Source: Lineolata rhizophorae
Taxonomy: Eukaryota > Ascomycota > Dothideomycetes > Lineolatales > Lineolataceae
Assembly: GCA_010093515.1 (NCBI GenBank)
Contig: MU001677.1
Span: forward strand, 457,654 to 521,653
Direction of reading: 5' to 3'
Length of the DNA stretch: 64,000 nucleotides
The notes beneath the pieces were generated by a model. The model was not told the origin of the DNA and made no database searches. It saw only the letters and a program-made list of their open reading frames with translations. The first letter of the stretch is position 1. Each line of letters opens with the position of its first letter. Below, piece after piece: positions 874 to 48,041 of this stretch. Made by a program: the position numbers and the translations under genes.

Positions 874-3800
874 ATGTCCGAAGCATCTTGCCCTATTTCT
901 GGCATTAGGAGCCAGCTGGGTCGAGGTTGTCCAGCCTCCCAGCGGAAAGGGCCACGCGGATGTGCCTTTGCCGCATTCCAACCCAATGCCGGGGGTTCTA
1001 CGATGTTTGCAGATGTATGTGTCCCTGACGTAAAAGGAGGCGCTAGTTGTGATCAGACAACGAAGATATGCTGACATCAAGATGTCTAGGACCCTGCCGA
1101 AATACAACGTCTTCACGAACAAGAACGCCGCACTATCAACGAAATGCTCATGCCCAAAGCGTATCCCAAAGAAGTCACCAAGAGTCTAAAAAATGCCGAC
1201 GAACTTAACCCACCCGATGACGACGTCCTCGCCATCGCTCTTGGCGCCCCCGCTCGCAGCGTCCTGGCCCGCGCCGAGCAGATCGGGCCGCGGACCGGCT
1301 GGAAAGATGGCTACCTTTCCTCCACGCACGGCTTCTGCCCACCGGACCCGTCTGACGCGCCAGTCGCCCTGCGCGCCACGCCCGGCCGCGTGTGGTCTGA
1401 CCTGTGCGAGCGCATGCCCGGCGTGGTCGCGCGCGGGAACATGCGCAACGCGATTCTGGCGCTGCCGCTCGTGCACGGCACCGCCGACGTGATCCCGGAC
1501 CGGGCTCTATGGGCCGCGACGGTGTGCCTGGGCATCCTGGCTAGCGTGTACCGCTACGAGGAGCGGAACGATGGCAACGACGGCATCACGGTGGCGCCCC
1601 CCCCGGGGACGTTTCGTGGGCTGACGGGCGACGAGGACGACGAGGAGCCAGAGACCAAGGGGATCCCGCGCAATATTGCGATTCCATTGCGTCAAGTCTG
1701 CACGAGGATGGGACGGCCCTTGCCGCATCTCACGCAGTTCGATGTTAGCATTTACAATTATAAGATTAGGGATCCCACAAGCGTGCATCCGTATGTAGCG
1801 CGGTCAGAGAATATGGACCTGAGGTGGCCGGTAAGTCAACTTGGGCAATAGTCCGGAAGAGATTAGAACGAGTGCTAACATAACGAACAGGTTTTCAACG
1901 ATCGAGGCGAGGCCATGTTCCTTCTTTGCATGGCTGAGGTTCATGGCGCGTTTGTTCCCGGGGTGGAGCTTCTTACCCGCTGCCAGGAGGCGGTGATGAA
2001 CCGCGACACCGAGGGCCTCATCCAGGAGCTCGTCAAACTCAAAGCCGTCATCGACCAACTTGCGTTTGTCTTCCACAAGATCAGCGTGAATCCCAACTCC
2101 GGAGAGAATTTTGCCAATCCTGTCGAATGGGGCCAACGATATGCCAAGTTCAGCGCACCCCTATCCAAGCGTGTCCCTGCCCTGTCGGGTCTTGCTCTGC
2201 CGTTGTTCCTCACCATGGATGCCTTCTTGGGTCGGACAAAGTACACTTCTTTCCTAGGTGCCGAGGCGGTTCATTTGCGGCGATGGCTGCCTATGAACAT
2301 TCGCGCTTTCATTGCTGCAATTGAAAACCATTACCAGGTTCCCAACTACGTGAAGGAAGTGAACGATCCTCGGCTTAACGGAGTTTTGGAAGGCCTCGTG
2401 GAATCATACGCTGGTGAGCGGGGCTTCATGGGAACCCATCGGTACAAGGTGTACGGCTTCCTCGAAGTCGTGGCCAAGACCGGACGTACCGAGACCAACG
2501 GCAACGCTGGCGCCACTGATTCTGTCGGACGCCCCTGGGAAGAAGTCCACAAGACGCTCTCCGAATCCATGATCGAGCGGCTCGACCCCTACCGCGGCAA
2601 GCTTTCAGTGCAGCCGCATGAGATGCGGGGCACGTTTGAAGAGTGCCGCTTCAAAGCCCGTATACTTGAGCGCGCTAATATCGACAACGACCCTACGCGC
2701 GCTACGGGCATGGTCACGTTCGATTTGCAGGGCACTGGAATCACGTTCCAACCTGGCGACAGACTAGCCATCATGCCTATGAACACCAGGCAGGAAGTCA
2801 TCAAGGTGGCGGCCGCCCTCGGTGTTGAGGATATGATGGATACTATTGTGCCGGTAGAGAATGGGTCCGAGTGGGCTCGCTTCACGAAACACCTAAATCA
2901 GGTGTCCAGGTCTTCGATCGGCCTCACTGTTGGCGATATTTTGAAAAGAGGACATCTCGCTCCCCTAACCAAGGATTTCGTCATGGCCTTTCATCTGGCC
3001 TTGCGTGCTTCCTCTCGTACTGTTCTGAAGCTCCTGTCCACCGAAGAGTGGCCGATCAGAGCCAGCTTGGGCGATCTTCTCCAAAAGGCTATCATGGACG
3101 TCCCGTCCGCCGTTTGGGATCAGGCCTTTAGTCTTTCCGATTTGTCCTGGCTCTCCAAGTTGATCCCGCTCGAGGTGCCGCGGACTTATAGCATCTCGAA
3201 CTACTCAGGCGAACTGTTACCAAGCATGATCGATCTCACTATTTCTCGGGTAGAGATGAAGCCCAGCCCACTACTTGAGCCCGCGAAGGATGCCTTGCCT
3301 TCGTATGGCGTTAGCAGTGGCTTCCTCAACCCCAACCCCCAGATCATGCCCTGCGACCATCTCGACGATGACGAAGTCCTTATTGGGCTCTCACGCCCCA
3401 TAAATTTCCAGCTGCCGTCTTCGACCACAGTACCAATTGCAATGTTTGCGGGTGGCTCTGGCATCGCTCCGTTCCGCGGTTTCTGGCAATCACGGGTGGC
3501 CAACGGCATCGGCCGGAATGTGTTGTTCATGGGTACACAATCACGGGACAAATTCCTGTATGAACACGAGCTACGTGGACTGGTGCAAGAGGGTTCCCTG
3601 GAACTATATACAGCATTCTCACGAGATCGCCGCGGCCTTCTTTTCGACCCTTCCACCCGGGAGCTCATCGAGAGGGACATGGATCCCCGCTATATCGACG
3701 CGACTATTGTCGAGCAAGGCCGGCTCGTCAGCGAACTAGTTATGTCTAAGAACCAAGGCGGGCTCGGCGGCCACTTGTACATTTGCGGGTCGGTCTCGGT

Positions 3801-5916
3801 GTACGAAACCGTCATGTCTGGCATCCGCGCGGCCATCTACAAGTACCAGGCTGCCACCAAGTCTTCAGCCGACGCGCTCCTAGCGACAGCATTCGCCGAG
3901 CGCCGCTTCATGCTTGATATCTTCATGACGCCGAGGCCCATTTCGTTCACCATGCCAACAATATCGCTCGCGGATCTAGCAAAGCACACGGGCCATCGCA
4001 AGGGTTCGCGCATGTGGATTGGTGTCCATGGCGGCGTGTATGATGTCACCGACTTTCTCGATATCCATCCTGGTGGTACGCTCATTGTGGCTGCTAGTGC
4101 CGGGTTGGACGCTACGAAGACGTTCGATGATCTTGCCCATACGAGCAACCCGGAGGTCTCATCACTGCTATCTAAGTATTTCATCGGCCACTTGCAGCAA
4201 AAGCCAGAGCTGCAGCGGCTTCCTGAAATCAGTCAACTCTACGATGTGTGGCATCAATACCTGCGCACAAGTGTGGAGAGCCTTACCACATTGTATTTCG
4301 AGGCCAATAACATCATGGAGGACTCGAAGGTGTGGTTCTCGGGTGGGTTGTTCAACATTGGCGGAGTAAGGAAGTTCTACCAGTTCCAGTCGCGTCTCAT
4401 GCAGAACGGCTTCTCAACTTTGTTCGGTGCCCAGCTCCAAGAGATATATCTTAAGCTATCCTTCACGCTAGCCAATTCTGGCGCGCCAAATGTCAGATTG
4501 CCGGACATCATCGGCACTATCACACGTGCTCAGTCCTCTCCGGATTCAACAACAGCCGCCAAGGAGATTGCTAATGTTGGGCAATTCGTCTGCAACGCAA
4601 GCGGTTCGGCACAGTTCCATGAGAACGGCATCCTACGGTACGCGCAAACTTGCACAGAGATGGACATCGCGTTCCTGGAACAGATCCGCGACGAGATTTG
4701 CACGGGCATGGATGCTTTTGGTATCTTCACGTCGGCGTCCGAGGAGACCACTACCGCTGGCAAGCAGATGCGTTTAGCCGCGTTCCTACTCTCCGTGCTT
4801 GAACGCATCGCTAAGAGGCTTGAGTCGTTCTATGGGTCGCTGGCCGGAGAGTCCATGTATCGTCCGGAGTTGGAGCTGAATCCGGCGAGGTCTCGGTGGA
4901 ACAATCTTAGGAGGAAGATTAGAGACGGATCTTTCTTCGTGCTTGCGCATACGCTAGAATTCAGCTTCAAGGGTAGCGAAGATGACAATGGACTTGAGGA
5001 TCCCGCTGCGTACTTCCGGAGCAACCGGAATCGCACCGCTACCCGCGCGGCTGAGGTCGACTTCACCGACATTTTCCAGCAAGCCCAGCGTGCGTTGCAA
5101 CGTGCCGATGTCCACTCGAAGCAGCAGCAGCAACAGCAACAGAAGGGCCGCGCCGCAGCTCACGATCGAGCTGTTCCAGCCGAACCCATCCGCCGTCGCC
5201 TCGCCGACAACCACACCGCACGTGCGTCGCAAAAAGCGAACGCGCCCTCGTCCTTCGAGGCCGGCGAACAACGTGGCGCTCTCTCCCGCATGACAGCCTT
5301 CATCGACTCTAATCGCGCCGCCATCAATCGCCTCAGCCGGCTACCGCCCGGCCTCGACATCGAACAACTGATGGCCGACTATGCCTCCGTGGGTGGCGGG
5401 CGCGGCGCGAACGCCTCCGGCGCAGAAGTCCCCGCCCTGATGGGCGGGCCTGTCCTCTCTCCACCGGCCTCTGACACAAGCTCCCAGCGCACGCGCTCCT
5501 CGTCGCAGGCCTCCTCGACAGCCTCGTCCGGCCGCGCCGCCGCCGCCCGCGCTCATGCTCACGCGCAAATCGCCGCATCTGCGGGCGCCGTCCCGGACAT
5601 GCCACCGCCGCCCGCGCCACCCAAGGACGATGGCCTCCAGCGCCGTCGTGGGCCCAGCGCCGCTGTGGCGCCGGATATGCTAGCGCCGACGGGTTCGACT
5701 ACCGCCGCGCTGCGGCGTGCGCCGACATTGCCGTCGTCACCGAGGGCGTCGCGTGTTGGGAGTGCGTCTGGAGCGGCGCCATCGGTGGCAGGTTCGGTGA
5801 AATCGAATGCGTCGGTGGCAGTGATGCCGGCGGGCTTGAATACGAGGAAAGGGCTCAGACAGGATGGAGTGGTGGAAGGAAGGAATGTCAATGTTGGGTT
5901 GAGGGGGTTGAGGTAA
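874..5916 (+). CDS. IDO-like heme domain / P450-reductase-like / cytochrome b5 fusion protein
   Basis: Exons 874-1014, 1090-1830 and 1891-5916 give 1635 residues. Both introns have good donors (GTATGT, GTAAGT), branch points and acceptors (TAG, CAG), and all joins are phase 0. Residues about 60-500 follow the indoleamine 2,3-dioxygenase (IDO) fold: the IPRNIAIP stretch, a SENMDLRWPVF stretch matching ENMDVLFSF of IDO, and a GTHRYKV motif whose His477 aligns with the proximal heme ligand. Residues about 540-960 resemble the FAD/NADPH half of P450 reductase: PRTYSIS (724-730) for FAD, GGSGIAPFRGF (815 on) for NADP, and a late LYICGS motif. There is no FMN domain. Residues about 981-1063 are a cytochrome b5 domain with heme ligands His1020 (HPGG) and His1044. 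Then come about 260 helical residues of unknown family and a disordered tail with polyQ and proline runs. I infer a self-supplied heme oxygenase-type enzyme with unknown substrate. The domain calls are firm; the activity is not. Confidence 0.87.
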
Positions 5917-6858
5917 GGGGGGGGCTGCTGGTCGGCCGTTCTCTGTTGGCTTTTCTGTTTATTCTGGTAGGAGTGGAGAGTAGACTGCACTTGCAAAAAA
6001 AAAAAAAAAAAACCAAAGTTCAAGGGTGAGAAAAAAAATATATACCATGTACTGCCGTCGCATTTCCTTTCCCTATCATTATCTATTTTGCATCAAAATT
6101 TCCTTCTCTGTCTATCTTTCGTACTAGGTAGATTAAAGGGAGGTGTTAAGGAATTTCATTAACATTTTCGTTGGATTTTGCTTCGTGTATACAATATCAA
6201 AGCAACTAGGTATCGATAAATGATTGCTATGTAGTTACTACACTCAAATTGTAGTCATCTTAAATAGCACATGAAGTTGGTTATTATCGCGTTATATGTC
6301 GGTGTTACTCAACTAGATATGGCCTTGGGAAGCTGAAAATTTTGAGATCCAGACTTTCCCAGAAATTACGAGTAACTGACATGTCATCAAAAATTGATGC
6401 TACCGGATTCTTAAAGTTTGGACGATTGGACTCATACAAGTAAGCAAACTACGTGCGTGGCATGGCGTGAATAGTCTCTACAATATATGCCGGTGCTAGT
6501 GTTACGAAGCTATGCGTTCAGTTTGTCTAGAGCTCCAAATAAACGTTGCGCAAGGAGCCGAGAAAAAGCAAAAGTTGGATGAGGTTGTCCAGCATCCCAC
6601 AGAAAAGGCGCCGACGGTATAAATATGTTCCGGCGTTTTGCATTAGAATTCCTCCCTTCGGCATGTTCAAAGCTCTATCGGCACTCCTGATTTACGTGCC
6701 GTAAAAGAGACGCATTACGACGTGAGCCAATCTTTCTAACGAAACTGAGTGGTCTTGCATACGGTTACTCATATAACTAAGTCGAAAATTCCTTAAGATT
6801 ATTGTGGTTTCCCTGCAAGCTGCGGCAGTGAAATAGACCCCGCAAGTTGCCTCGCACT
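5917..6858. other. intergenic, AT-rich, with an 18-base poly-A run
   Basis: This is the 3' flank of the IDO fusion gene and the promoter of the next plus-strand gene. A poly-A run lies at 5995-6012. The part from about 6575 to 6740 shows ordered, degenerate similarity to the first exon and intron of the IDO fusion (about 915-1060), including a shared 13-base block (GAGGTTGTCCAGC). No open frame of note. Confidence 0.55.
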
Positions 6859-8049
6859 ATGGCTACTTCTGCAGAAGACTTCGAGCTCTTCACTTCCCTG
6901 CGATACGATCCATTACTGTTAAAAAGTGTTGAAAATGGCTCTGGGGGGCTAAGCTTTGTTTCCCCCAGCCCATTTTACATGCTAGTGTACCACCGCGACC
7001 GCATGCTCGAAGCCGCCAGACATTTCGGTTTTGACGCGGCGGCCGAGAAGCTCTCTGATGGCAAAGCCTTATCTGAGGCGTTGTTAAGCAAGGTCCGAAA
7101 GTATCAAAAAGAAAGCGAAGCGAAGGACGGTCCTCTGAGAGTAAGAACAAGAGATTTCTCTGTTCGACTTTATTTATTTATTAGTTTTACAACTGTTGCC
7201 TGCCTCCAGCTCGTGCCGCAGACAGCCATCCTCGTTGGATCTTCGAGTCGCATATTTTGAAAACATCCTTATACTAAAATTTTCTGCTCCGACCAGATCC
7301 GCACTTTGTATAACCGAGCCGGCGACCTCCAAGTCGACATGTCTCCTGTGCCGCCCGTCCCACTCGAGGCCTTGTATCCACCGACCTTAGACCCACCACC
7401 TAACCCCAAACCTCCTCGCGTCTCCCCACTCACAGGCGGCGCCCTTACTCTCGGCCCTACCGACAGCCTATCCTCGTCCTCATCGCCACTTCCACCCACC
7501 ATCCCGCGCTGGACACTCATGCTCGACTCCCACCCGACCGCCCTAACCGCTCACACCTCGCTCAAAACAACCCATCGGCCGCACTACGACGCTTCCCGCG
7601 CGCGCAGCCTTCCCGGCAACTCCGACGGCGCTTCACCCGCGGCCTCCGCCGCCGCCCTCACCGAAGTCTTCCTCTATTCCCCTGTCGGTGAGATTACCGA
7701 GGGCAGCATATCGACGCCATACTTCTTCCGCGGGGGCCGCTGGGTGACGCCGCCCGTCGGTACGCCGCCTGCAGCCGGGCCCTTCACCACCCCGACGCGG
7801 CAGGGCATCGACGGCGGGCCCGACGTGCCGTTTGCCGGGCGGTGGGGCCATAGCGTGCGTGGCGGCGGGCAGAGGGGCACGACTAGGCGGTGGGCGCTGC
7901 GAAAGGGGCTTTGTCAGGAGGAAGGGGTGGAAAGGGCGAGTGTGAAGATTGGGGAAGGGGTATGGGTGAGTAACGGGGTTAGGGGTTTCGGGTATGGGAT
8001 TGTCGTGGAAGGGAAGACGGAAGACAACGACGCAGCGCAAAACAATTAA
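6859..8049 (+). CDS. aminodeoxychorismate lyase-like class IV aminotransferase
   Basis: Exons 6859-7140 and 7297-8049 (one 156-bp intron, GTAAGA...CAG, phase 0) give 344 residues. The protein opens with FELFTSLRYDPLL and contains a YHRDRMLEAA motif, then LKTTHRPHYD with Lys184 as the likely pyridoxal-phosphate lysine, then GEITEGSIS and a glycine/arginine-rich GTTRRWALRKG block. These mark a fold-type IV PLP enzyme of the aminodeoxychorismate lyase / branched-chain aminotransferase group. The known family reaction converts 4-amino-4-deoxychorismate to p-aminobenzoate and pyruvate for folate synthesis. The ATG at 6859 is chosen because the frame upstream has only a TTG. An extra Pro/Ser-rich stretch (about residues 115-165) is typical of fungal members. 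The precise substrate remains an inference. Confidence 0.82.
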
Positions 8050-30080: not shown

Positions 30081-31416
30081 ATGCGTTTCGCGTCCTCCTT
30101 CACAACGGCCCTGACCGTCGGTAGCGGCATCGTGTCCGCGAGCCCGGTTCGGTGTGTCTGCCCATTCCAGTTTCACGAGACCCACGGGTCAAAAGTCTCC
30201 TCTTATGGCTAAAAGTTAACAATTGTCCCTCCAGCCGCCAGGCGGGCGGACTCAACGACGCCATGGTTGCCGCCGGCAAGGAATACTTCGGGACGGCTCT
30301 GACGATGCGCAACGACTACCAGGAGAGTAGCATCATCGACAACAACGCCGAGTTCGGTTCCGTGACGCCCGAGAACGCCATGAAGTGGGATGCGACGGAG
30401 CCGAATCGCGGCCAGTTCAACTGGGGCAACGCGGACCAGATCGCCAACTACGCTGCGCAAAACAACAAGGAACTGCGCTGCCACACGCTCGTTTGGCACA
30501 GCCAGCTGCCCTCGTGGGTCGCTAACGGCGGCATGGACAACGCCACGTTGATCCAGACCATGGAGAGCCATATTAACGCCGTGATGGGCCGGTATAAGGG
30601 CCAGTGCACACACTGGGACGTCGTCAACGAAGGTCAGTCAAGGAACATATACACTTCCAGTGCTCAGAAGGACACGGGAGAAACAGCGCACGGAGAGAAG
30701 AAAAATCAATCAACTGACCGAACTGGCCCTCATAGCCCTCGAGGAAGACGGTACCTACCGCGACAGCGTCTTTTACCGCACCATCGGCGAAGCCTTTATC
30801 CCCATCGCCTTCCGCATGGCCGCCGCCGCCGACCCGGACGCCAAGCTCTACTACAACGATTACAACCTGGCGTACGGCGCCGAGAAGGCCGAGGGCGCCG
30901 TCCGCATCGTCGAACTCATCCAGTCGTACGGCGTCAAGATCGACGGCGTCGGCCTGCAGGGCCACATGGTCATCGAGCCGACGCCCACGCAGGAAAATCC
31001 CGTGCCCGCCCAGGCGGACCTCGAGGCCGCTCTCCGCATGTTCACCGACTTGGAGGTCGACGTCGCCTACACCGAGATCGACATCCGCATGAACATGCCG
31101 GACAGCCAGCAGAAGTTAGAGCAGCAGGCAGATGCGTATGCGCGGATGACGGGCGCCTGCATGGCCGTGGAGCGCTGCGTCGGGATAACTGTTTGGGTAT
31201 GTGGACGCGTCCTTTCTTTCTTGTTCTCGATAACGTTCGCTAAATTTGTCGCAGGGCGTCTCCGATAGGTACTCCTGGGTCCCGCAGACATTCGACGGCG
31301 AGGGATCGGCCCTCCTCTGGGACCAGAACTACCAGAAGAAGCCGGCGTACCAGGCAGTCATGGACGCAATCACGGCGCCTCAACCCGCTGCGCCTGAAAC
31401 CGGGTACGAGTGCTAG
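30081..31416 (+). CDS. GH10 endo-1,4-beta-xylanase, secreted
   Basis: Exons 30081-30151, 30235-30632, 30736-31196 and 31255-31416 give 363 residues; introns of 83, 103 and 58 bp. A signal peptide (about 20 residues) is followed by SPVRRQAGGLN, with a dibasic site suited to Kex2 processing. The GH10 barrel is complete: [33 protein letters not shown] with acid/base Glu156 next to the second splice, [16 protein letters not shown], and AYTEIDIRM with nucleophile Glu270, then WGVSDRYSW. There is no carbohydrate-binding module; the protein ends with a short Pro/Ala tail and a Cys. It would break the xylan backbone outside the cell. Confidence 0.95.
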
Positions 31417-32231: not shown

Positions 32232-38117
<5,886 letters not shown>

Positions 38118-40395: not shown

Positions 40396-41717
40396 TGCGA
40401 CGCGAGGGTTTGAAGTGCAGTGGTATGGTCAGTTGCTCGAGAGATTACATTGGAACGCGATTGACTGCTTGTGGCGCGAATGATTTTCGTAGAGGAAGTT
40501 TGGATCCTCGGCGCGTAGGTATGAACGGTCTCGTCAATCTCCCCCGCCCGGACCGAGGTTGTCGTCGCTCGTAGGACCCTCGGACGTCCAGGCTCGCGCC
40601 CTTGCCCTTGTCGCCCACGGCCGTCGCCAGCCTCTCGCCCGTTCCGTCCCGCCTATTTACGTACTTACGTCGCACGCAAACATCAGGGGTCTACCATAAC
40701 TGCTAGGCCCGTGCGCTTCGAAGCTTCAGGACGATCAATCTATTCTCGCGGCCGCACGCCGGGCGCGCATGAGCTGCTGCAGGCCCGCAGAACTGCAGAG
40801 AAACCCCCCAGGGATCCGCGGGTCCCTATCGTCAATTGAACAGCGGGCTTCCGGGCTCCTGCGTAGCATGTGCGCCGTTGCGCGGCGCTGCTCTTGGCCC
40901 TTGGCCGGCTGGTCGCTGGCGGGCTGGGGCCATCGGCGCGCCTTGGCGGCTGGGGCGCCGCGTGGAGTCGCCGTCTGCTCACACGCCCGCGCTCCGCTGC
41001 CGCAACCAGCACACCCTCCCGCCCACCCGCCCACCACCTCCGTCTGCTGCCTCGTGCTGCCGTCCTGGCAAGGGACTGGACTATAGTTTATCTGTCCGTG
41101 TGTGCGTGCGTGCTTGTGTGTCTGTGTGTGTGCGTGTGTACAGGGCCTGCCTTTGTGTCTGCCAATTCCCTCCCTCCCACACGCGGGCCGGTGGATCCTA
41201 CCGACAAACAGCAAACAACAAGCCTCCGTCGACGGCGAGAGAGAACCAGAGAAGCCGACTCCGCAATTCTACAATCGCCCTCCCGCCTCCTGGGTGCGGA
41301 ATCATACTCGTCGTGCGAGCCGGGCCCCTCATGGTTGGGATCGCTCTCCTAACGACCGCTTTCCACCACGACGGCGACGCTACGGTCAAGGAGCGCCAGG
41401 CCGGAGCGAGGCGGCAAGGTTATTTGCTCTGGTCCTAGCTAGGCTTGCGGGCCAGCGCGGATCGAATACCGTCCTCGATTGGTCTTTTGAGGAACCCGCG
41501 GGAGGCAACATAGGGTCACCTCATCACCGCACTCTTTCGAGGAGGGATAGGAGAGAGATAGAGTCAAGCGGCAGCATTCGAGGATTATTCACCTATCGAC
41601 CTACTTCATCCTCTTTAGCTTCCTTCCCTCCATATAGCATCGCCCGTCGTAGCCATCCATCCGCAAGACCGCTTTCATCTACCGCCGCACTCGCTATCTC
41701 CCTCCGTCGACGACACC
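40396..41717. other. divergent promoter and long leader of the phospholipase D gene
   Basis: No gene seen. It contains a GT-rich imperfect microsatellite (about 41,096-41,140) and a long C/T-rich leader up to the ATG at 41718. Several overlapping plus-strand frames here have Arg/Pro/Ala-rich translations typical of random GC-rich DNA. Confidence 0.5.
41096..41140. repeat. imperfect GT/GCGT microsatellite
   Basis: About 45 bases of alternating TG, CG and occasional TC steps in the leader of the phospholipase D gene. Such purine/pyrimidine alternation can vary in length between strains. Confidence 0.8.
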
Positions 41718-44700
41718 ATGCCGACCTCCCACTCCGACCCCGTACCCGCTCTCAAAGAGCCACCCACCTCCTCCGACCCGCCTCGTCCCCCTCTCGAAAC
41801 GCACTCCTCTAGCACCAGCATCTCCCCCCTAACTAGCCCCCGCTCGCACTCCCCGCAGCGCGCCGACGGCGTCCTCTCCCTCAACGGCACCGCCAACGGC
41901 CGTCGCTCCTACGACAAGCACGCCAATAACTCGCGCGAACCCTCTCCACGCACACTCCTCCCGCCGCCGGCGCTGCAAGATCCGCGCAAGCACGTCGCCA
42001 AAGGCGCGCTTAACGGCACCCGTGGCAGCGACGGCCGCGACTCGTCCTCCTCCCGCCCTGGGACGTCCGGCTCCGTCCGCTTCGAAAAACACGACGCACC
42101 GTCTTCCTCGACGCCGACGCCGCAGGACCACCGCGCTGACACTACCACCGAGGCCCGCCGCGACTTCCCCTTCAACGCTCCCGTAGGCTCCTCCGGCGAG
42201 CCGTCCACAACGACCGGACTCTCCGAGCAGAACGACGCTAACGGCAGGCCGCGCGGGCCCGGCGCCAAGGACTCGTCTGCGGCCACTGCTGCAGACGGCG
42301 ATGCGGATGCCGCGGTTCAGCCGCGCCCGCGGTCGCGCAGGGGCGGTGACTCGGACAAAGGCATGCCGGACGGCACGGTCACGCCGCCTGGAAGGCGTAG
42401 TGTGCACTTCTCGCGGGCGCCGACCATCGACTCGAGCCTGGCGGGGCACTCGCGGAACCAGTCGATGGGGGAGGACGCAGGCGGCGTAGGCGGGGTGCAG
42501 GGACAGCAGCAGCAGCAGCAACAGCAGCAACAGCAACAGCCCGGCGGCGGCACGGCGTCGCAGCTGCTGTCGAAGCTAAAGGCGCTGGCGGCGCCCATCG
42601 CGATGCAGACGCACGGGCGGAACCAGAACGGATACGCGCTCGGCGGGGGTTCCGACTCGGCCGTCACACCGGGAGGGACAGCAGGGGACACGCCCGGGCC
42701 CATGTCGCCCATATCGGACCGCGGCGACAGGGACAGCGAGGCGGGCGCCGACGCCGACGCCGAGGAGTCCGGCACCGAAGCCGCCGAGCTGCCCTCGCGC
42801 AGCCGCCTGCCCCGCAAGCGGCGCAAGAGCAGGCGCGCCAACGAGATGGGCACCCAGACGGCGCCGACGACGCCGAGGACCGCGGGCCCGGCGCCGGGAT
42901 ACGGCGGCAAGATGCCGTCGTTTCTGCGCGACCGCGCCGGCGCCGGCGCGCGGGCCGACGGCGGCGCCGGCGGAGACTCGCCGCCCACGGCGGGCGTCTC
43001 TCCCATGTCGTTCCGCCCGCCCTTCGTCGGACGCAGCGCCACCATGGGCGACATCCCGGAGCACCACGCCCGCGGCGGCGTCTCCGAGGACGAGGGCCGC
43101 GACCGCCTGGCCAAGCAGAGCACCTGGCGTCGCGGCCTGCACGCGCGGGGGCTGAGCTACGCCGGCGGGCGCGGCCGCGCCCGCGAGAACGACGACGAGT
43201 CTCCCAGCGGCTTGCGCCGGCCCGGGAACCTGCGCCGGCTGACGGGCATCGGCGGGTCCGCGCTCGCGGGCGGCGCCGCTGGCGGCGCCAACAACCCGGA
43301 GGCGTCGCCGTCGGTGTGGCGGATGCGCGGCGACCGCACGGGCAGCATCAGCCGCGACAAGTGGCGGCAGCTCAAGGCGTCGTTCAAGCTGCTGGGCGCG
43401 AAGCGGGGGCGGGACGACTGGGGGCTCGACCATGGCAAGTCAGCGGAGCTGCTGGCGGAGCTGCTGGCGGGCGTGCCGGCCGCGCTCATGCTGGCCAGCA
43501 TGTTCCAGCGCGACGAGCACGGCCACCGCCGCATCCCGGTGCTGCTCGAGCAGCTCAAGCTGCGCATCGTCGACTCGCAGCGGCTCGAGGACAAGAGCGG
43601 CGATCGCCACCTCAACTTCCGCATCGAGCTCGAGTACGGCAGCGGCTTGACGCGCATGAAGTGGGTCATCAATCGCACCGTCAGGGACTTCTTCAACCTC
43701 CACGCGAAGTACAAGACGCAGGGGGATCTGTTCAAGATCGGGCCGGCCCACGGAGCCAAGTCCAAGCTGCCGCGGTTTCCGAGGACCGTCATCCCGTACC
43801 TGCGGGATGTGAGGGGGCTGTTCGATGATGAGGGCGAGGAGGAGGAGGAGGACATCGGCGTCGGCGGCGACCAGACGGACGGCGAGGCCAGCGGCACGGA
43901 TCGCCCGGCCCTGGGAGGCGCAAGGATGTCGACGGCCAGGCGGCGGCGGTCGTCGTTCGGCTTCGCGCGGCGCAAGTCGAGCATCGGCGGGCCGGCGGAC
44001 CTGGCCCACAGCCGGCAGCCCAGCCGCATCGCGGGGGCCAATCAGGCGGAGCTGCGCCAGAACATGTACAACGAGCGGCAGCGGCTGAAGCTGGAGCAGT
44101 ACCTGCAGCGCATGGTGACGCACATGATGTTCCGGCCGGACAGCAACCGGCTGTGCAAGTTCCTGGAGCTGTCGGCGCTCGGGGTGCGGCTCGCGGCCGA
44201 GGGTGGCTACCACGGCAAGGAAGGCTTCATGATGATCCAGAGCGGGAAGGGCACGGATTTTAGGAAAGGGTGGACGCCGTCGCTAGTCACGAACAGGCAC
44301 CGTCCCAAGTGGTTCCTTGTCCGGCACAGCTACGTCGTGTGCGTGGACTCGCCCGAAGAGATGAACGTGTACGACGTCTTCCTCGTCGACCCGGACTTCA
44401 CCCTCGAGGAGCGCAAGCGCCGCCTGCGCGACGAGAAGCCGCAGGAGATCGCCAAGCGGGCCAAGACGACGGCGACGCACCCCAAGCACCACATGCTGAA
44501 GCTGCGCAACTCGGAGCGGCTAGTCAAGCTGCTGGCCAAGAACGAGCGGCAGCTGCTGCAGTTCGAGGAGAGCATCAACTTCATGCGGACGTCGACGGAG
44601 TGGTCGGTCGAGCACCGCTTCGGCTCCTTCGCGCCCATCCGGCACCGCGTCTTCGCCCAGTGGCTCGTCGACGGCCGCGACTACATGTGGAACGTCAGCC

Positions 44701-47700
44701 GCGCCATCAGCATGGCCCGCGACGTCATCTACATACACGACTGGTGGCTGAGCCCCGAGCTGTACATGCGCCGCCCCGCCGCCATCAGCCAGAAGTGGCG
44801 GCTCGACCGCCTGCTCCAGCGCAAGGCCCAGGAGGGCGTCAAGGTCTTCGTCATCATGTACAGGAACATCAACTCGGCCATCCCGATCGATTCGGAGTAC
44901 TCCAAGTTCTCCCTCCTGGACCTGCATCCGAACGTCTTCGTGCAGAGGTCGCCGAATCAGTTCAGGCAGAATACTTTTTTCTGGGCGCATCACGAGAAGA
45001 TTTTGATCGTGGATCACACGGTGGCGTTCTGCGGTGGGGTCGATTTGTGCTTTGGTCGGTGGGACACGCCGCAGCATTCTGTCGTGGATGACAAGGCGAC
45101 GGGGTTCGAGCCGAACGATCTACCCAAGGACGCAGATCACTGTCAGCTTTGGCCGGGGAAGGATTACTCGAATCCGCGCGTGCAGGACTTCTACGCGCTG
45201 GACAAGCCGTACGAGGAGATGTATGACAGGACTAAGGTCCCCCGCATGCCATGGCACGACATCGGCATGCAGATCGTGGGACAGCCGGCGCGCGATCTCA
45301 CCAGGCACTTCGTGCAGCGGTGGAACTACATCCTGCGACAGCGCAAGCCGTCGCGGCCGACGCCGTTCCTGCTTCCGCCGCCGGACTTCATCCCCGCGGA
45401 CATCGAGGCGCTGGGGCTAGACGGGACGTGCGAGATACAGATCCTACGCTCGGCGTGCTCGTGGTCCATCGGCACGGCGGACAAGACAGAGCACAGCATC
45501 ATGAACGCCTATTGCAAGATGATCGAGACGTCGGAGCACTTCGTCTACGTGGAGAACCAATTCTTCGTCAGCAGCTGCGAGGTCGAGGGCACCAAGATCG
45601 AGAACCACATCGGAGACGCGCTCGTGGAGCGCATCATCCGCGCCCACCGAAACGACGAGGACTGGCGCGCCGTCCTCATCATCCCGCTCATGCCGGGTTT
45701 CCAGAACACGGTCGACAGCCAGGACGGCTCCTCGGTGCGACTCATCATGATGTGCCAGTACCGGTCCATCTGCCGGGGGGAGTCGAGCCTGTTCGGGCGC
45801 CTACGCCAGGCCGGCGTCGAGCCCGAGGACTTCATCGAGTTCTACGCGCTGCGCTCGTGGGGCAAGATCGGTCCGCATAAGGCGCTCGTCACGGAACAGC
45901 TCTACATACACGCCAAGTGCATGATCGTCGACGACCGCGTCGCCATCATCGGCTCGGCCAACATCAACGAGCGCTCCATGCTCGGCTCGCGCGACTCCGA
46001 GGTCGCCGCCATCGTGCGCGACACGGAGATGATACCGTCCGTCATGGCCGGCGAGCCCTACATGGTCGGCCGCTTCCCGCACACGCTCCGCATGCGCCTG
46101 ATGCGCGAGCACCTCGGCCTCGACGTCGACGACATCATGGAGGAGGAGTGTCGCGGCGAGGACGTGGAGCGCTCGCGGATGCGCCGGCAGCAGCAGCATG
46201 CGATGGCGCACAGCAGCGACGAGGAAGAGGGCCCTATGGGCGCCGGTGACGGCAACGTGAGCGGCACTTCGGAGCCATCGACGCCGGCGACGGACCGCTC
46301 GCTCGAGCGGCGCCTCATCGAGAGCAAGCACCGGGCCGAGGACGAGCTGCTGGCGCGCGTGCAGCGCATGCACTCGTTCAACCACGACGTCGACTGGGAG
46401 CAGGAAGGCAACCCGCACCTCAAGACGGTCAAGAAGCTCACCACGGACCCACGCGTTACAGACAATATCGAGCACGCGCGCGACGTTCGCGGCGAGGGGC
46501 CCGATCACATGCGCGACCATGCGGGCCACCCGCTCGAACTCGCGGGGAGAGACGTCGTGATGGATAGGGAGGGCAGGGAGGTGCTGGTCACAGATATGGC
46601 GTCTGAGGGGAAGGGCAGCCTGGCGCATCCGCTGCATGGACACGGGCACGGGCACGGGCACGGGCACGGGATCGGCCACGCATCGTCGAGCGGGAAGCGC
46701 TCCCGCGCTCGGGCCAAGTCCGGCGCCACGACCAAGACGACGGCGAGCAGCGCGCCCAGCGCTGCCGCGGCGTCCGACGCGCCCGTCCCGCACATCGCGG
46801 GCGCCAGCACCGGCAACCTGCTGCCGCCGCAGCGGCTGGGGCGCGGCGACACGGTGGCGGCGGGGCTCGCGCAGCTGTCGCAGCTCCCCGCGCTGCCGGC
46901 GCAGGACGACACGGACATCGGGGGCCCGCCGCTGGCGCGCAGCTTCTCGACGCGGTCGCTCGAGCTGCTGCGGCCGCTGCTGGCCGACATGGCGCGGCGC
47001 CGGCCGCTGGTGACGCGCGACTGCATGCGCGACCCGGTCAACGACGGCTTCGTGCTCGACACGTGGCACGCCGTGGCGGAGAACAACACGCGCATCTTCC
47101 GGCTCGTCTTCCGCTGTATGCCCGACTCGGAGGTCAAGGAGTGGAAGGAGTACAAGGAGTACGCGGCGTTCGCGGAGCGGTTCGCGCAGGCGCAGAACGC
47201 CGCCGGGGGCTCGGCCAAGGGCCCCGGCTCCGGCGGCAAGAACAAGGGCGCCCACCACCACCACCATCACCAGCAGGACGTGCTGGCCAAATCGGGCCCG
47301 CCGGGCGCCGGCGGCGTCGGCGTCGAGAAGCTGGCCGGCGTCGTGGGCGAGAAGCTCGCCAAGGAGGCCGTCCGCGCCGAGAACAAGGTCGAGCGCTGGG
47401 AGGAGAAGGTCGCGGACAAGGTGCCCGGCGTCGGGAACCAGCAGCAGGGCCTTGGCAAGGTGGAGGACTGGGCCGCGGACCAGGAGCACAGGGCTAGCGT
47501 CTCGGCGCAGGCGCATGCTCAAGAGCAGGCGCAGGCGCAGGCGCAGGCGCAAGGAGAAACCGTCCTCGACGAGAAGAACGTCGCCGCCGCCAACGATGCC
47601 GACGAGCTCGCCGCCCAGCAGCAGCCGCCGCAGACCCCCACCGACGCGAAACTCCAGCGCGAGCGCACGATCACGTATTCCGACTACGCGGCACCGCCGC

Positions 47701-48041
47701 TGCCGACGACGGCGGCGGCAACCGGCGGTGGCGGCGGCATCAATGGCGGCGGCGGCGGCGGCTCGTCCCCTCAGCCTCCTCCCAGCGCCGCCAGCGGCAT
47801 ACCTCCTCCCGCTCACAAGCCGACGGGGACGCGGCGCCGCCGCGCGACGACGCGGTCGAGCGGGCACCGCGTCTTCCACGCGGCGGACGAGGCGGCGCTG
47901 CTGGACCGGCGCGACGCCGAGGAGCTGCTCGACATGGTGCAGGGGCATTTGGTGCTGTGGCCGTACGAGTGGTTGGAGAAGGAGGAGAAGGGCGGGGGAT
48001 GGCTCTATCCGGTGGATCAGATTGCGCCGTTGGAGATTTAG
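41718..48041 (+). CDS. phospholipase D (PLD1/Spo14 type), PX-PH-HKD2
   Basis: One uninterrupted frame of 2107 residues, longer than yeast Spo14 (about 1680). Residues 1-540 are low-complexity (Ser/Pro/Arg-rich, a 12-glutamine run). A PX-like domain covers about 590-700 (FRIELEYGSGLTRMKW) and a PH-like domain about 780-900. The two catalytic HKD motifs are HHEKILIVD (His1092, Lys1094, Asp1099) and IHAKCMIVDD (His1398, Lys1400, Asp1405), each followed by the expected GG/GS segments. The enzyme would turn phosphatidylcholine into phosphatidic acid and choline at membranes, with PX and PH domains binding phosphoinositides. The C-terminal 600 residues include a conserved block (about 1750-1830) and repeats of His-Gly and Ala-Gln. 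The catalytic core is clear; the tails may be poorly conserved. Confidence 0.95.
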   Translation: MPTSHSDPVPALKEPPTSSDPPRPPLETHSSSTSISPLTSPRSHSPQRADGVLSLNGTANGRRSYDKHANNSREPSPRTLLPPPALQDPRKHVAKGALNGTRGSDGRDSSSSRPGTSGSVRFEKHDAPSSSTPTPQDHRADTTTEARRDFPFNAPVGSSGEPSTTTGLSEQNDANGRPRGPGAKDSSAATAADGDADAAVQPRPRSRRGGDSDKGMPDGTVTPPGRRSVHFSRAPTIDSSLAGHSRNQSMGEDAGGVGGVQGQQQQQQQQQQQQPGGGTASQLLSKLKALAAPIAMQTHGRNQNGYALGGGSDSAVTPGGTAGDTPGPMSPISDRGDRDSEAGADADAEESGTEAAELPSRSRLPRKRRKSRRANEMGTQTAPTTPRTAGPAPGYGGKMPSFLRDRAGAGARADGGAGGDSPPTAGVSPMSFRPPFVGRSATMGDIPEHHARGGVSEDEGRDRLAKQSTWRRGLHARGLSYAGGRGRARENDDESPSGLRRPGNLRRLTGIGGSALAGGAAGGANNPEASPSVWRMRGDRTGSISRDKWRQLKASFKLLGAKRGRDDWGLDHGKSAELLAELLAGVPAALMLASMFQRDEHGHRRIPVLLEQLKLRIVDSQRLEDKSGDRHLNFRIELEYGSGLTRMKWVINRTVRDFFNLHAKYKTQGDLFKIGPAHGAKSKLPRFPRTVIPYLRDVRGLFDDEGEEEEEDIGVGGDQTDGEASGTDRPALGGARMSTARRRRSSFGFARRKSSIGGPADLAHSRQPSRIAGANQAELRQNMYNERQRLKLEQYLQRMVTHMMFRPDSNRLCKFLELSALGVRLAAEGGYHGKEGFMMIQSGKGTDFRKGWTPSLVTNRHRPKWFLVRHSYVVCVDSPEEMNVYDVFLVDPDFTLEERKRRLRDEKPQEIAKRAKTTATHPKHHMLKLRNSERLVKLLAKNERQLLQFEESINFMRTSTEWSVEHRFGSFAPIRHRVFAQWLVDGRDYMWNVSRAISMARDVIYIHDWWLSPELYMRRPAAISQKWRLDRLLQRKAQEGVKVFVIMYRNINSAIPIDSEYSKFSLLDLHPNVFVQRSPNQFRQNTFFWAHHEKILIVDHTVAFCGGVDLCFGRWDTPQHSVVDDKATGFEPNDLPKDADHCQLWPGKDYSNPRVQDFYALDKPYEEMYDRTKVPRMPWHDIGMQIVGQPARDLTRHFVQRWNYILRQRKPSRPTPFLLPPPDFIPADIEALGLDGTCEIQILRSACSWSIGTADKTEHSIMNAYCKMIETSEHFVYVENQFFVSSCEVEGTKIENHIGDALVERIIRAHRNDEDWRAVLIIPLMPGFQNTVDSQDGSSVRLIMMCQYRSICRGESSLFGRLRQAGVEPEDFIEFYALRSWGKIGPHKALVTEQLYIHAKCMIVDDRVAIIGSANINERSMLGSRDSEVAAIVRDTEMIPSVMAGEPYMVGRFPHTLRMRLMREHLGLDVDDIMEEECRGEDVERSRMRRQQQHAMAHSSDEEEGPMGAGDGNVSGTSEPSTPATDRSLERRLIESKHRAEDELLARVQRMHSFNHDVDWEQEGNPHLKTVKKLTTDPRVTDNIEHARDVRGEGPDHMRDHAGHPLELAGRDVVMDREGREVLVTDMASEGKGSLAHPLHGHGHGHGHGHGIGHASSSGKRSRARAKSGATTKTTASSAPSAAAASDAPVPHIAGASTGNLLPPQRLGRGDTVAAGLAQLSQLPALPAQDDTDIGGPPLARSFSTRSLELLRPLLADMARRRPLVTRDCMRDPVNDGFVLDTWHAVAENNTRIFRLVFRCMPDSEVKEWKEYKEYAAFAERFAQAQNAAGGSAKGPGSGGKNKGAHHHHHHQQDVLAKSGPPGAGGVGVEKLAGVVGEKLAKEAVRAENKVERWEEKVADKVPGVGNQQQGLGKVEDWAADQEHRASVSAQAHAQEQAQAQAQAQGETVLDEKNVAAANDADELAAQQQPPQTPTDAKLQRERTITYSDYAAPPLPTTAAATGGGGGINGGGGGGSSPQPPPSAASGIPPPAHKPTGTRRRRATTRSSGHRVFHAADEAALLDRRDAEELLDMVQGHLVLWPYEWLEKEEKGGGWLYPVDQIAPLEI
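42504..42539 (+). repeat. CAG/CAA run coding a 12-glutamine tract
   Basis: Twelve CAG/CAA codons in the disordered N-terminal part of the phospholipase D gene. Likely to vary between isolates. Confidence 0.9.
46635..46670 (+). repeat. six-fold His-Gly codon repeat
   Basis: Six tandem His-Gly codon pairs (CAT GGA, then five CAC GGG) in the C-terminal linker of phospholipase D. The near-identical 6-bp units suggest recent slippage. Confidence 0.88.

What the first reader, a model, noticed from the sequence alone, without database searches (positions are those of the whole stretch)
874..5916. A heme-dioxygenase-like domain fused to its own reductase and cytochrome b5
The joined gene encodes, in order, an IDO-like heme domain (His477 as proximal ligand), a P450-reductase-like FAD/NADPH module without FMN domain, and a b5 domain (His1020, His1044). 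It is established for human IDO1 that cytochrome b5 together with P450 reductase can act as the electron donor that keeps the heme ferrous. A fungal gene that welds the three parts into one chain is therefore a natural self-sufficient version of that system and points to an enzyme needing repeated reduction, perhaps a monooxygenase rather than a dioxygenase.
Basis: partly seen in the sequence, partly recalled or inferred. Interest (0 to 1): 0.78.

Follow-up and report, generated by a model that had tools for sequence, protein, structure and literature searches.

The report
Fungal IDO-like domain fused to reductase
A fungal gene joins a divergent relative of the tryptophan-cleaving enzyme IDO to its own NADPH-fed flavin reductase and cytochrome b5 in one protein chain; the chain looks built to push electrons into the IDO-like part, which seems to have lost the parts that grip tryptophan and so may do different chemistry.

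Summary
The spliced gene (exons 874-1014, 1090-1830, 1891-5916; 1635 aa) scores above Pfam cut-offs for IDO (aa 123-359, E 2.5e-16), FAD_binding_1, NAD_binding_1 and Cyt-b5, with no flavodoxin match. Exon 3 is one open frame holding the IDO C-half, reductase, b5 and a C-terminal extension, so the fusion does not depend on splicing. Reductase residues (R725, Y727, S728, C926, D970) and b5 ligands (His1020, His1044) are kept.

His477 as proximal ligand is plausible but unproven: the helix pattern fits, but flanking anchors put Val481 there. Motifs shared by 11 of 11 prokaryotic IDO homologues are absent, so a plain tryptophan dioxygenase is unlikely; two of those motifs also vary in human IDOs.

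Best reading: a single-chain NADPH-FAD-b5-IDO-like heme oxygenase on a non-tryptophan substrate. Main rival: a heme-less IDO-like domain. No fungal collection could be searched, and no listing from ten searches of an open-licence paper library named such a fusion.

The parts
874..1014 (+). Proposed exon 1 (aa 1-47); coding status doubtful, Met65 (1144) is an alternative start
   Evidence: GT donor at 1015 and open frame; but GC by codon position 0.574/0.681/0.468 against 0.664/0.486/0.749 in exon 2, and about 40 bp shared with 6573-6616
1090..1830 (+). Exon 2 (aa 48-294): N-terminal half of the IDO-like domain
   Evidence: the Pfam IDO match crosses the exon 2/3 junction
1891..5916 (+). Exon 3 (aa 295-1635 and stop): one open frame holding the IDO C-half, reductase, b5 and C-terminal extension
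1315..2610 (+). IDO-like domain, about aa 123-534 (includes intron 2)
   Evidence: Pfam IDO E 2.5e-16 for aa 123-359; PDB IDO1 E 3.3e-7, aa 237-469; weak AF2 model of aa 295-534 matches IDO1 in Foldseek, best E 1.2e-4
2437..2439 (+). His477, candidate proximal heme ligand (Val481 is the alternative register)
2131..2151 (+). GQRYAKF (375-381), near where IDO homologues carry R-[PH]-Y (the substrate arginine, Arg231 of IDO1; role recalled)
   Evidence: alignment ambiguous here, Arg377 lies nearby
2179..2202 (+). ALSGLALP (391-398), in place of [ST]GAQS; Ser393-Gly394 kept
2500..2520 (+). GNAGATD (498-504), in place of GTGGT[PD]
2647..3258 (+). FAD-binding module (aa 547-750), RTYS at 725-728
3442..3924 (+). 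NADPH-binding module (aa 812-972): AFSR 869-872, Cys926, Asp970, terminal aromatic Phe972
   Evidence: Pfam 812-873
3967..4194 (+). Cytochrome b5 domain (aa 987-1062), heme ligands His1020 and His1044
   Evidence: Pfam Cyt-b5 E 1.1e-15, profile 2-73 of 74
4231..5130 (+). Unknown C-terminal region (aa 1075-1374), mostly helical in a very low-confidence model
   Evidence: Nothing significant in Pfam, PDB, PHROGs or plasmids; AF2 mean pLDDT 42
5131..5913 (+). Low-complexity C-terminal tail (aa 1375-1635), following a glutamine run
   Evidence: Sequence

Best explanation
The gene encodes one large NADPH-driven oxidoreductase. NADPH reduces FAD in an FMN-less, CPR/sulfite-reductase-type module; FAD passes single electrons directly to the b5 heme, whose domain starts about 15 residues after the reductase's terminal aromatic residue (Phe972 to aa 987); b5 reduces a histidine-ligated heme in the N-terminal IDO-like domain, which binds O2. 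As the tryptophan-recognition motifs are altered, the substrate is probably not L-tryptophan. A donor built into the chain suggests electrons are used in every turnover (monooxygenase-like) rather than only to rescue autoxidised enzyme. Shown by sequence: the domains, their order, the uninterrupted exon 3, the reductase and b5 residues, the departure from IDO motifs. Inferred: heme in the IDO-like domain, electron path, O2 chemistry, substrate.
For: Four domains in one chain; exon 3 is one open frame. R725, Y727, S728, C926 and D970 are identical in a CysJ and a CYP102-like reductase, and F972 sits where they have Tyr and Trp. No flavodoxin match, while both controls have one. b5 profile matched nearly end to end with both His ligands. 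His477 sits in the helix pattern of the proximal ligand, and the narrowest register window prefers it. Motifs in 11 of 11 prokaryotic IDO homologues are missing, 0 of 4. CPR with or without b5 supports recombinant human IDO1 in vitro (PMC13142367, passages).
Against: The broad register and three of four narrower windows put Val481, not His477, first; forced alignments score Val481 13.9 and His477 10.6 at usual gap costs. The HMM of nine IDO homologues does not align the query past about aa 457. The conserved Arg of the ligand helix is Met474. The model of the IDO C-half is weak (mean pLDDT 56; the ten-residue block holding His477 has 44), its IDO1 matches have rmsd 6.5-12.9 A, and IDO sequences were in its alignment, so it is not independent. 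PrnB, another IDO-fold enzyme, was inactive with b5 or CPR in vitro (PMC11791213, passages). No relative of the fusion could be searched, so conservation of His477 is untested. No RNA or biochemical data.
Confidence: 0.45

Rival explanations
1. The IDO-like domain has lost its heme (ligand position is Val481) and serves as a binding, scaffold or sensing module; the NADPH-FAD-b5 part is a b5-type reductase that feeds an external acceptor or the unknown C-terminal region.
For: Best ungapped register over the whole protein puts Val481 at the ligand column, 9.0 against -1.6 for the next place; IDO motifs 0 of 4; Tyr467 and Gly498/Gly501 fit that register.
Against: The local helix pattern fits His477. 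A b5 and a reductase kept in one chain with a heme-less domain has less obvious use (inference).
Confidence: 0.3
2. A self-sufficient but otherwise ordinary tryptophan 2,3-dioxygenase that uses reductase and b5 only to re-reduce autoxidised heme.
For: Pfam IDO E 2.5e-16; human IDO1 is supported by CPR and b5 in vitro.
Against: The R[PHI][YF], [ST][GA]AQS and GTGGT motifs, each in 11 of 11 prokaryotic homologues, are absent. Fungi carry stand-alone IDOs: most aspergilli have three (PMC7448278, passages).
Confidence: 0.12
3. A flavocytochrome that reduces O2 or another small molecule (oxidase, or NO dioxygenase) at the IDO-like heme, with no organic substrate.
For: Architecture recalls flavohemoglobin or NOX-type chains (recalled); the substrate motifs are altered.
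Against: Nothing specific in the sequence points to it.
Confidence: 0.1
4. An artefact: two neighbouring genes wrongly joined.
For: Exon 1 is doubtful; no RNA reads available.
Against: Exon 3 is one frame without internal stops from inside the IDO domain through b5, against 22-81 stops in the other five frames.
Confidence: 0.03

Closest known systems
Indoleamine 2,3-dioxygenase (PF01231; human IDO1, haloarchaeal and bacterial homologues)
   Same: N-terminal domain is homologous (Pfam E 2.5e-16, IDO1 E 3.3e-7); possible proximal His477
   Different: 21-24% identical to haloarchaeal IDOs; four motifs of 11 prokaryotic homologues absent; fused to its own reductase and b5
NADPH-cytochrome P450 reductase / sulfite reductase flavoprotein (CysJ)
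   Same: FAD and NADPH modules, Ser/Cys/Asp and Ser-Arg residues kept (their roles recalled)
   Different: No FMN (flavodoxin) domain found; b5 follows instead; Ser928 for Asp; NCBIfam sulfite reductase models far below their cut-offs (93 of 432 bits at best)
Cytochrome b5-cytochrome b5 reductase fusions of fungi (e.g. ZtCBR2)
   Same: b5 and FAD/NAD modules in one chain (PMC4557397, passages)
   Different: There b5 is N-terminal, the NAD module is PF08030, and the word indoleamine does not occur in the text
Self-sufficient P450s (CYP102 type)
   Same: Heme domain followed by its own NADPH reductase in one chain (L018)
   Different: Heme domain is IDO-like, not P450; no FMN domain; b5 as last carrier
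[quoted passage not shown]
   Same: IDO/TDO-related heme enzymes, several doing chemistry other than tryptophan dioxygenation (PMC11791213, abstract and passages)
   Different: No fusion is described in the passages read; PrnB stayed inactive with the redox systems tried, b5 and CPR among them

Membership tests
Indoleamine 2,3-dioxygenase (PF01231) | Profile score above the curated cut-off | tested here: met
   59.9 bits against cut-off 26, but only profile positions 7-211 of 412
Indoleamine 2,3-dioxygenase (PF01231) | Proximal heme histidine | tested here: inconclusive
   His477 by local pattern, Val481 by broad register
Indoleamine 2,3-dioxygenase (PF01231) | Substrate arginine in R-[PHI]-[YF] (Arg231 of IDO1; role recalled) | tested here: not met
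   Pattern in 11 of 11 prokaryotic homologues, absent in aa 295-540; human IDO2 has R-I-F. Alignment in the query is ambiguous, Arg377 is near
Indoleamine 2,3-dioxygenase (PF01231) | [ST][GA]AQS pocket motif | tested here: not met
   11 of 11 against SGLALP; human IDO2 has SAAQS, but human IDO1 has SAGQS, so the motif is not strict
Indoleamine 2,3-dioxygenase (PF01231) | GTGGT loop | tested here: not met
   11 of 11 against GNAGAT; for 2 of the 11 (L014, L015) the frame was picked by holding GTGGT, so 9 of 9 unbiased
Indoleamine 2,3-dioxygenase (PF01231) | Tryptophan to N-formylkynurenine | not testable with these tools
   Needs an enzyme assay
Diflavin reductase (CPR/CysJ) | FAD_binding_1 and NAD_binding_1 with catalytic residues | tested here: met
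   one change, Ser928 for Asp
Diflavin reductase (CPR/CysJ) | FMN-binding flavodoxin domain | tested here: not met
   None found (E up to 1); both controls score it
Cytochrome b5 (PF00173) | b5 domain with two axial histidines, first in HPGG | tested here: met
   Profile 2-73 of 74, His1020 and His1044
Self-sufficient heme oxygenases (as a way of working) | Heme oxygenase domain and its NADPH reductase in one chain | tested here: inconclusive
   Architecture met; heme in the IDO-like domain unproven
[quoted passage not shown]
   Homology supported; ligand ambiguous

The most novel reading that the evidence does not exclude
An undescribed class of single-chain, histidine-ligated heme monooxygenase: an IDO fold that dropped tryptophan recognition and gained its own NADPH-FAD-b5 supply, so that it does P450-like reductive oxygen activation on another substrate. 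The evidence does not exclude this.
Probability: 0.3. Interest if true: 0.85.

Novelty: new variant of a known kind. Interest (0 to 1): 0.6.

Why it matters
IDO-type enzymes are held to need ferrous heme, and what keeps them reduced in cells is still argued over (PMC13142367, passages). A natural protein that welds an IDO-like domain to a reductase and b5 would be a self-contained system for testing electron supply to this fold, and for asking whether a histidine-ligated IDO-type heme can run reductive monooxygenation. The departure from the tryptophan motifs points to unexplored chemistry. If the domain turns out heme-less, it is instead an unusual retired oxygenase used as a module.

Tried and rejected
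Gene-fusion artefact: rejected, exon 3 is one open frame. My first view that the proximal ligand is simply lost was withdrawn after one search showed comparable support for His477: among ten candidate positions tried, forced local alignments score 13.9 for Val481 and 10.6 for His477 at gap costs 11/1; at 5/1, Tyr482, His477 and Val481 score 15.9, 14.7 and 14.6. The helix pattern was chosen after looking at the columns and leaves out the Arg invariant in the nine homologues, which is Met474 here, so its rarity is optimistic.

Relatives: two viral-contig scans found none (600 and 23 pattern matches, none confirmed); one genome-contig scan gave four haloarchaeal IDOs (53 stretches, 4 confirmed); plasmids gave haloarchaeal and alphaproteobacterial IDO homologues (12 hits in 10 distinct records, 7 of the 10 viewed, none annotated as fused). 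The reductase-b5 part matched 88 plasmid records (40 listed) and 4 phage-collection records, none covering 80% of the query. In the phylum of G001, 5 of 294 genomes had an IDO match, 3 over the cut-off. None of these collections is fungal, so conservation of the fusion is untested, not absent. The window's own genome is not held.

C-terminal region: no family, no PDB relative by sequence, useless model; not taken to a fold search. Three Cys-Pro dipeptides (aa 6, 19, 130; 0.94 expected) could be heme-regulatory motifs (recalled), but two lie in doubtful exon 1, so I dropped the idea.

Literature: ten full-text searches ran (one search found 0 papers); no listing named an IDO-reductase-b5 fusion. 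Only listings, and passages of seven papers, were seen. The library holds open-licence papers only; the Yuasa and Ball papers on fungal IDOs and Shin et al. on the superfamily were not read.

It also named the motifs as if they were strict for all IDOs; human IDO1 and IDO2 depart from two of them.
Full report
What is there. The joined gene is real at the coordinates given: exons 874-1014, 1090-1830 and 1891-5916 with GT-AG introns give 1635 residues. Pfam finds, in order, IDO (aa 123-359, E 2.5e-16), FAD_binding_1 (547-750, 1.7e-13), NAD_binding_1 (812-873, 1.2e-7) and Cyt-b5 (987-1062, 1.1e-15), all above the curated cut-offs. In the PDB, aa 1-520 match human IDO1 (E 3.3e-7) and aa 481-976 match P450 and sulfite reductases (best E 2.2e-17). 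Exon 3 is a single frame without internal stops, while the other five frames of the same stretch have 22 to 81; as it begins inside the IDO domain and ends beyond b5, the fusion is in the DNA and not made by splicing. The IDO match spans the exon 2/3 junction, which supports intron 2.

What is uncertain in the gene model. Exon 1 has GC 0.574/0.681/0.468 by codon position, unlike exon 2 (0.664/0.486/0.749) and exon 3, and about 40 bp of it (914-956) recur at 6573-6616 ahead of the next gene (score 24 against at most 20 in 100 shuffles; blastn E 0.001 within the window). A 13-base core alone is no more frequent than chance at two mismatches (3 found, 1.8 expected). The protein may start at Met65.

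The reductase and b5. Aligned with a plasmid CysJ (L019) and a CYP102-like protein (L018), the query keeps R725-x-Y727-S728, C926 and D970, and has Phe972 where they have Tyr and Trp; AFSR lies at 869-872. The roles of these residues are recalled. Ser928 replaces Asp. No flavodoxin domain was found, while the two controls score it strongly. NCBIfam sulfite reductase models match but stay far below their cut-offs (93.1 of 432 bits at best). b5 begins about 15 residues after Phe972. His1020 (HPGG) and His1044 are the b5 ligands by position. Direct FAD-to-b5 transfer, as in b5 reductases, is therefore likely (inference).

The IDO-like domain. It is 21-24% identical to haloarchaeal IDO homologues, which lie near kynureninase genes in four of the seven plasmid regions viewed (not in 45-47). 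Four patterns, R-[PHI]-[YF], [ST][GA]AQS, FR..H and GTGGT, were each found in 11 of 11 prokaryotic homologues and none in the query's aa 295-540. Two limits apply: L014 and L015 were picked by holding GTGGT, and the human enzymes are looser, IDO1 having SAGQS and IDO2 LRSYH. The matching places in the query read GQRYAKF (375-381), ALSGLALP (391-398) and GNAGATD (498-504). The first is alignment-dependent: the HMM put Glu373 there with low confidence, MAFFT put Ala379, and Arg377 lies between.

The proximal histidine. Sliding 40 columns around the ligand of nine homologues over the whole protein gives one clear best place, with Val481 at the ligand column (mean 9.0; next place -1.6; overall mean -39, s.d. 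10.9), and -17.1 for His477. Of four narrower windows, three rank Val481 first and one (-10 to +10) ranks His477 first, by a small margin. Leave-one-out controls found the true histidine in 9 of 9 homologues. But the helix FMGTHRYKVYGFL, with His477 as ligand, agrees with the homologues at four of six conserved positions and has Phe for Tyr at a fifth; the sixth, Arg, is Met474. The pattern without that Arg occurs once in each of nine homologues and once in the query (0.02 expected per shuffled protein; chosen post hoc). A shift of one helical turn with compensating four-residue indels would reconcile the two. I put His477 as ligand at about 0.6.

Structure. AlphaFold2 of aa 295-534 with four haloarchaeal IDO C-halves gave mean pLDDT 56 and pTM 0.60; the block holding His477 has 44. 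The 50 listed Foldseek matches, of 793 at E up to 10, are all IDO1 entries (best E 1.2e-4, TM 0.53 by query, rmsd 6.5-12.9 A). This agrees with an IDO fold but is not independent, since IDO sequences were in the alignment. The tool's answer gave no coordinates, so side-chain direction was not checked. The C-terminal region gave pLDDT 42 and no significant family or PDB match.

How it most likely works. NADPH, FAD, b5 heme, then the IDO-like heme with O2. Keeping the donor in the chain suggests that electrons are used in each turnover. This is inference. CPR with or without b5 is reported to support recombinant human IDO1 in vitro; the same preprint calls the in vivo donor unclear, while two titles in its reference list claim b5 for human cells and yeast (PMC13142367, passages). 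PrnB shows that an IDO-related heme enzyme can do other chemistry, though it was inactive with b5 or CPR in vitro (PMC11791213, passages).

Known or new. Ten searches of the open-licence library gave no listing that names such a fusion. In fungi, b5-reductase fusions with N-terminal b5 are described (PMC4557397, passages), and most aspergilli have three IDOs (PMC7448278, passages). Unannotated copies may well sit in fungal databases that I could not search. I file it as a new variant of a known kind: IDO-related, but not a member of the tryptophan dioxygenases on the motif tests.

Setting. The window carries SPT6, a five-enzyme AROM-type protein and, next door, an aminotransferase class IV gene. 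AROM and the short introns point to a fungus (inference). None of the neighbours scanned suggests a pathway for the fusion; the rest of the window was only looked at by eye.

Noticed in passing
914-956 and 6573-6616: About 40 bp are shared upstream of two neighbouring genes, perhaps a decayed repeat or shared upstream element; it overlaps proposed exon 1.
   Followed up: partly
6859-8046: The next gene downstream carries Aminotran_4 (E 1.2e-9); it resembles fungal aminodeoxychorismate lyase (recalled). Its first stretch, 6859-7140, has no Pfam hit.
   Followed up: partly
32337-37148 (-): AROM-type shikimate pathway protein: dehydroquinate synthase, EPSP synthase, shikimate kinase, dehydroquinase and shikimate dehydrogenase N-terminal domains in one chain; the last C-terminal domain falls just under its cut-off.
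   Followed up: no
41619-48041 (+): A 2140-residue open frame that reads like phospholipase D with long low-complexity ends (by eye), in the window's GC-richest stretch.
   Followed up: no
30125-31243 (+): The frame reads like a GH10 xylanase at first and then turns into arginine-rich sequence (by eye): an intron or a frameshift.
   Followed up: no
aa 6, 19 and 130 of the fusion (exon 1 and exon 2): Three Cys-Pro dipeptides, 0.94 expected, possible heme-regulatory motifs (recalled); two lie in doubtful exon 1.
   Followed up: partly
L001, L002, L009, L013: Haloarchaeal IDO homologues near kynU on plasmids, a likely tryptophan catabolism pair in archaea.
   Followed up: no
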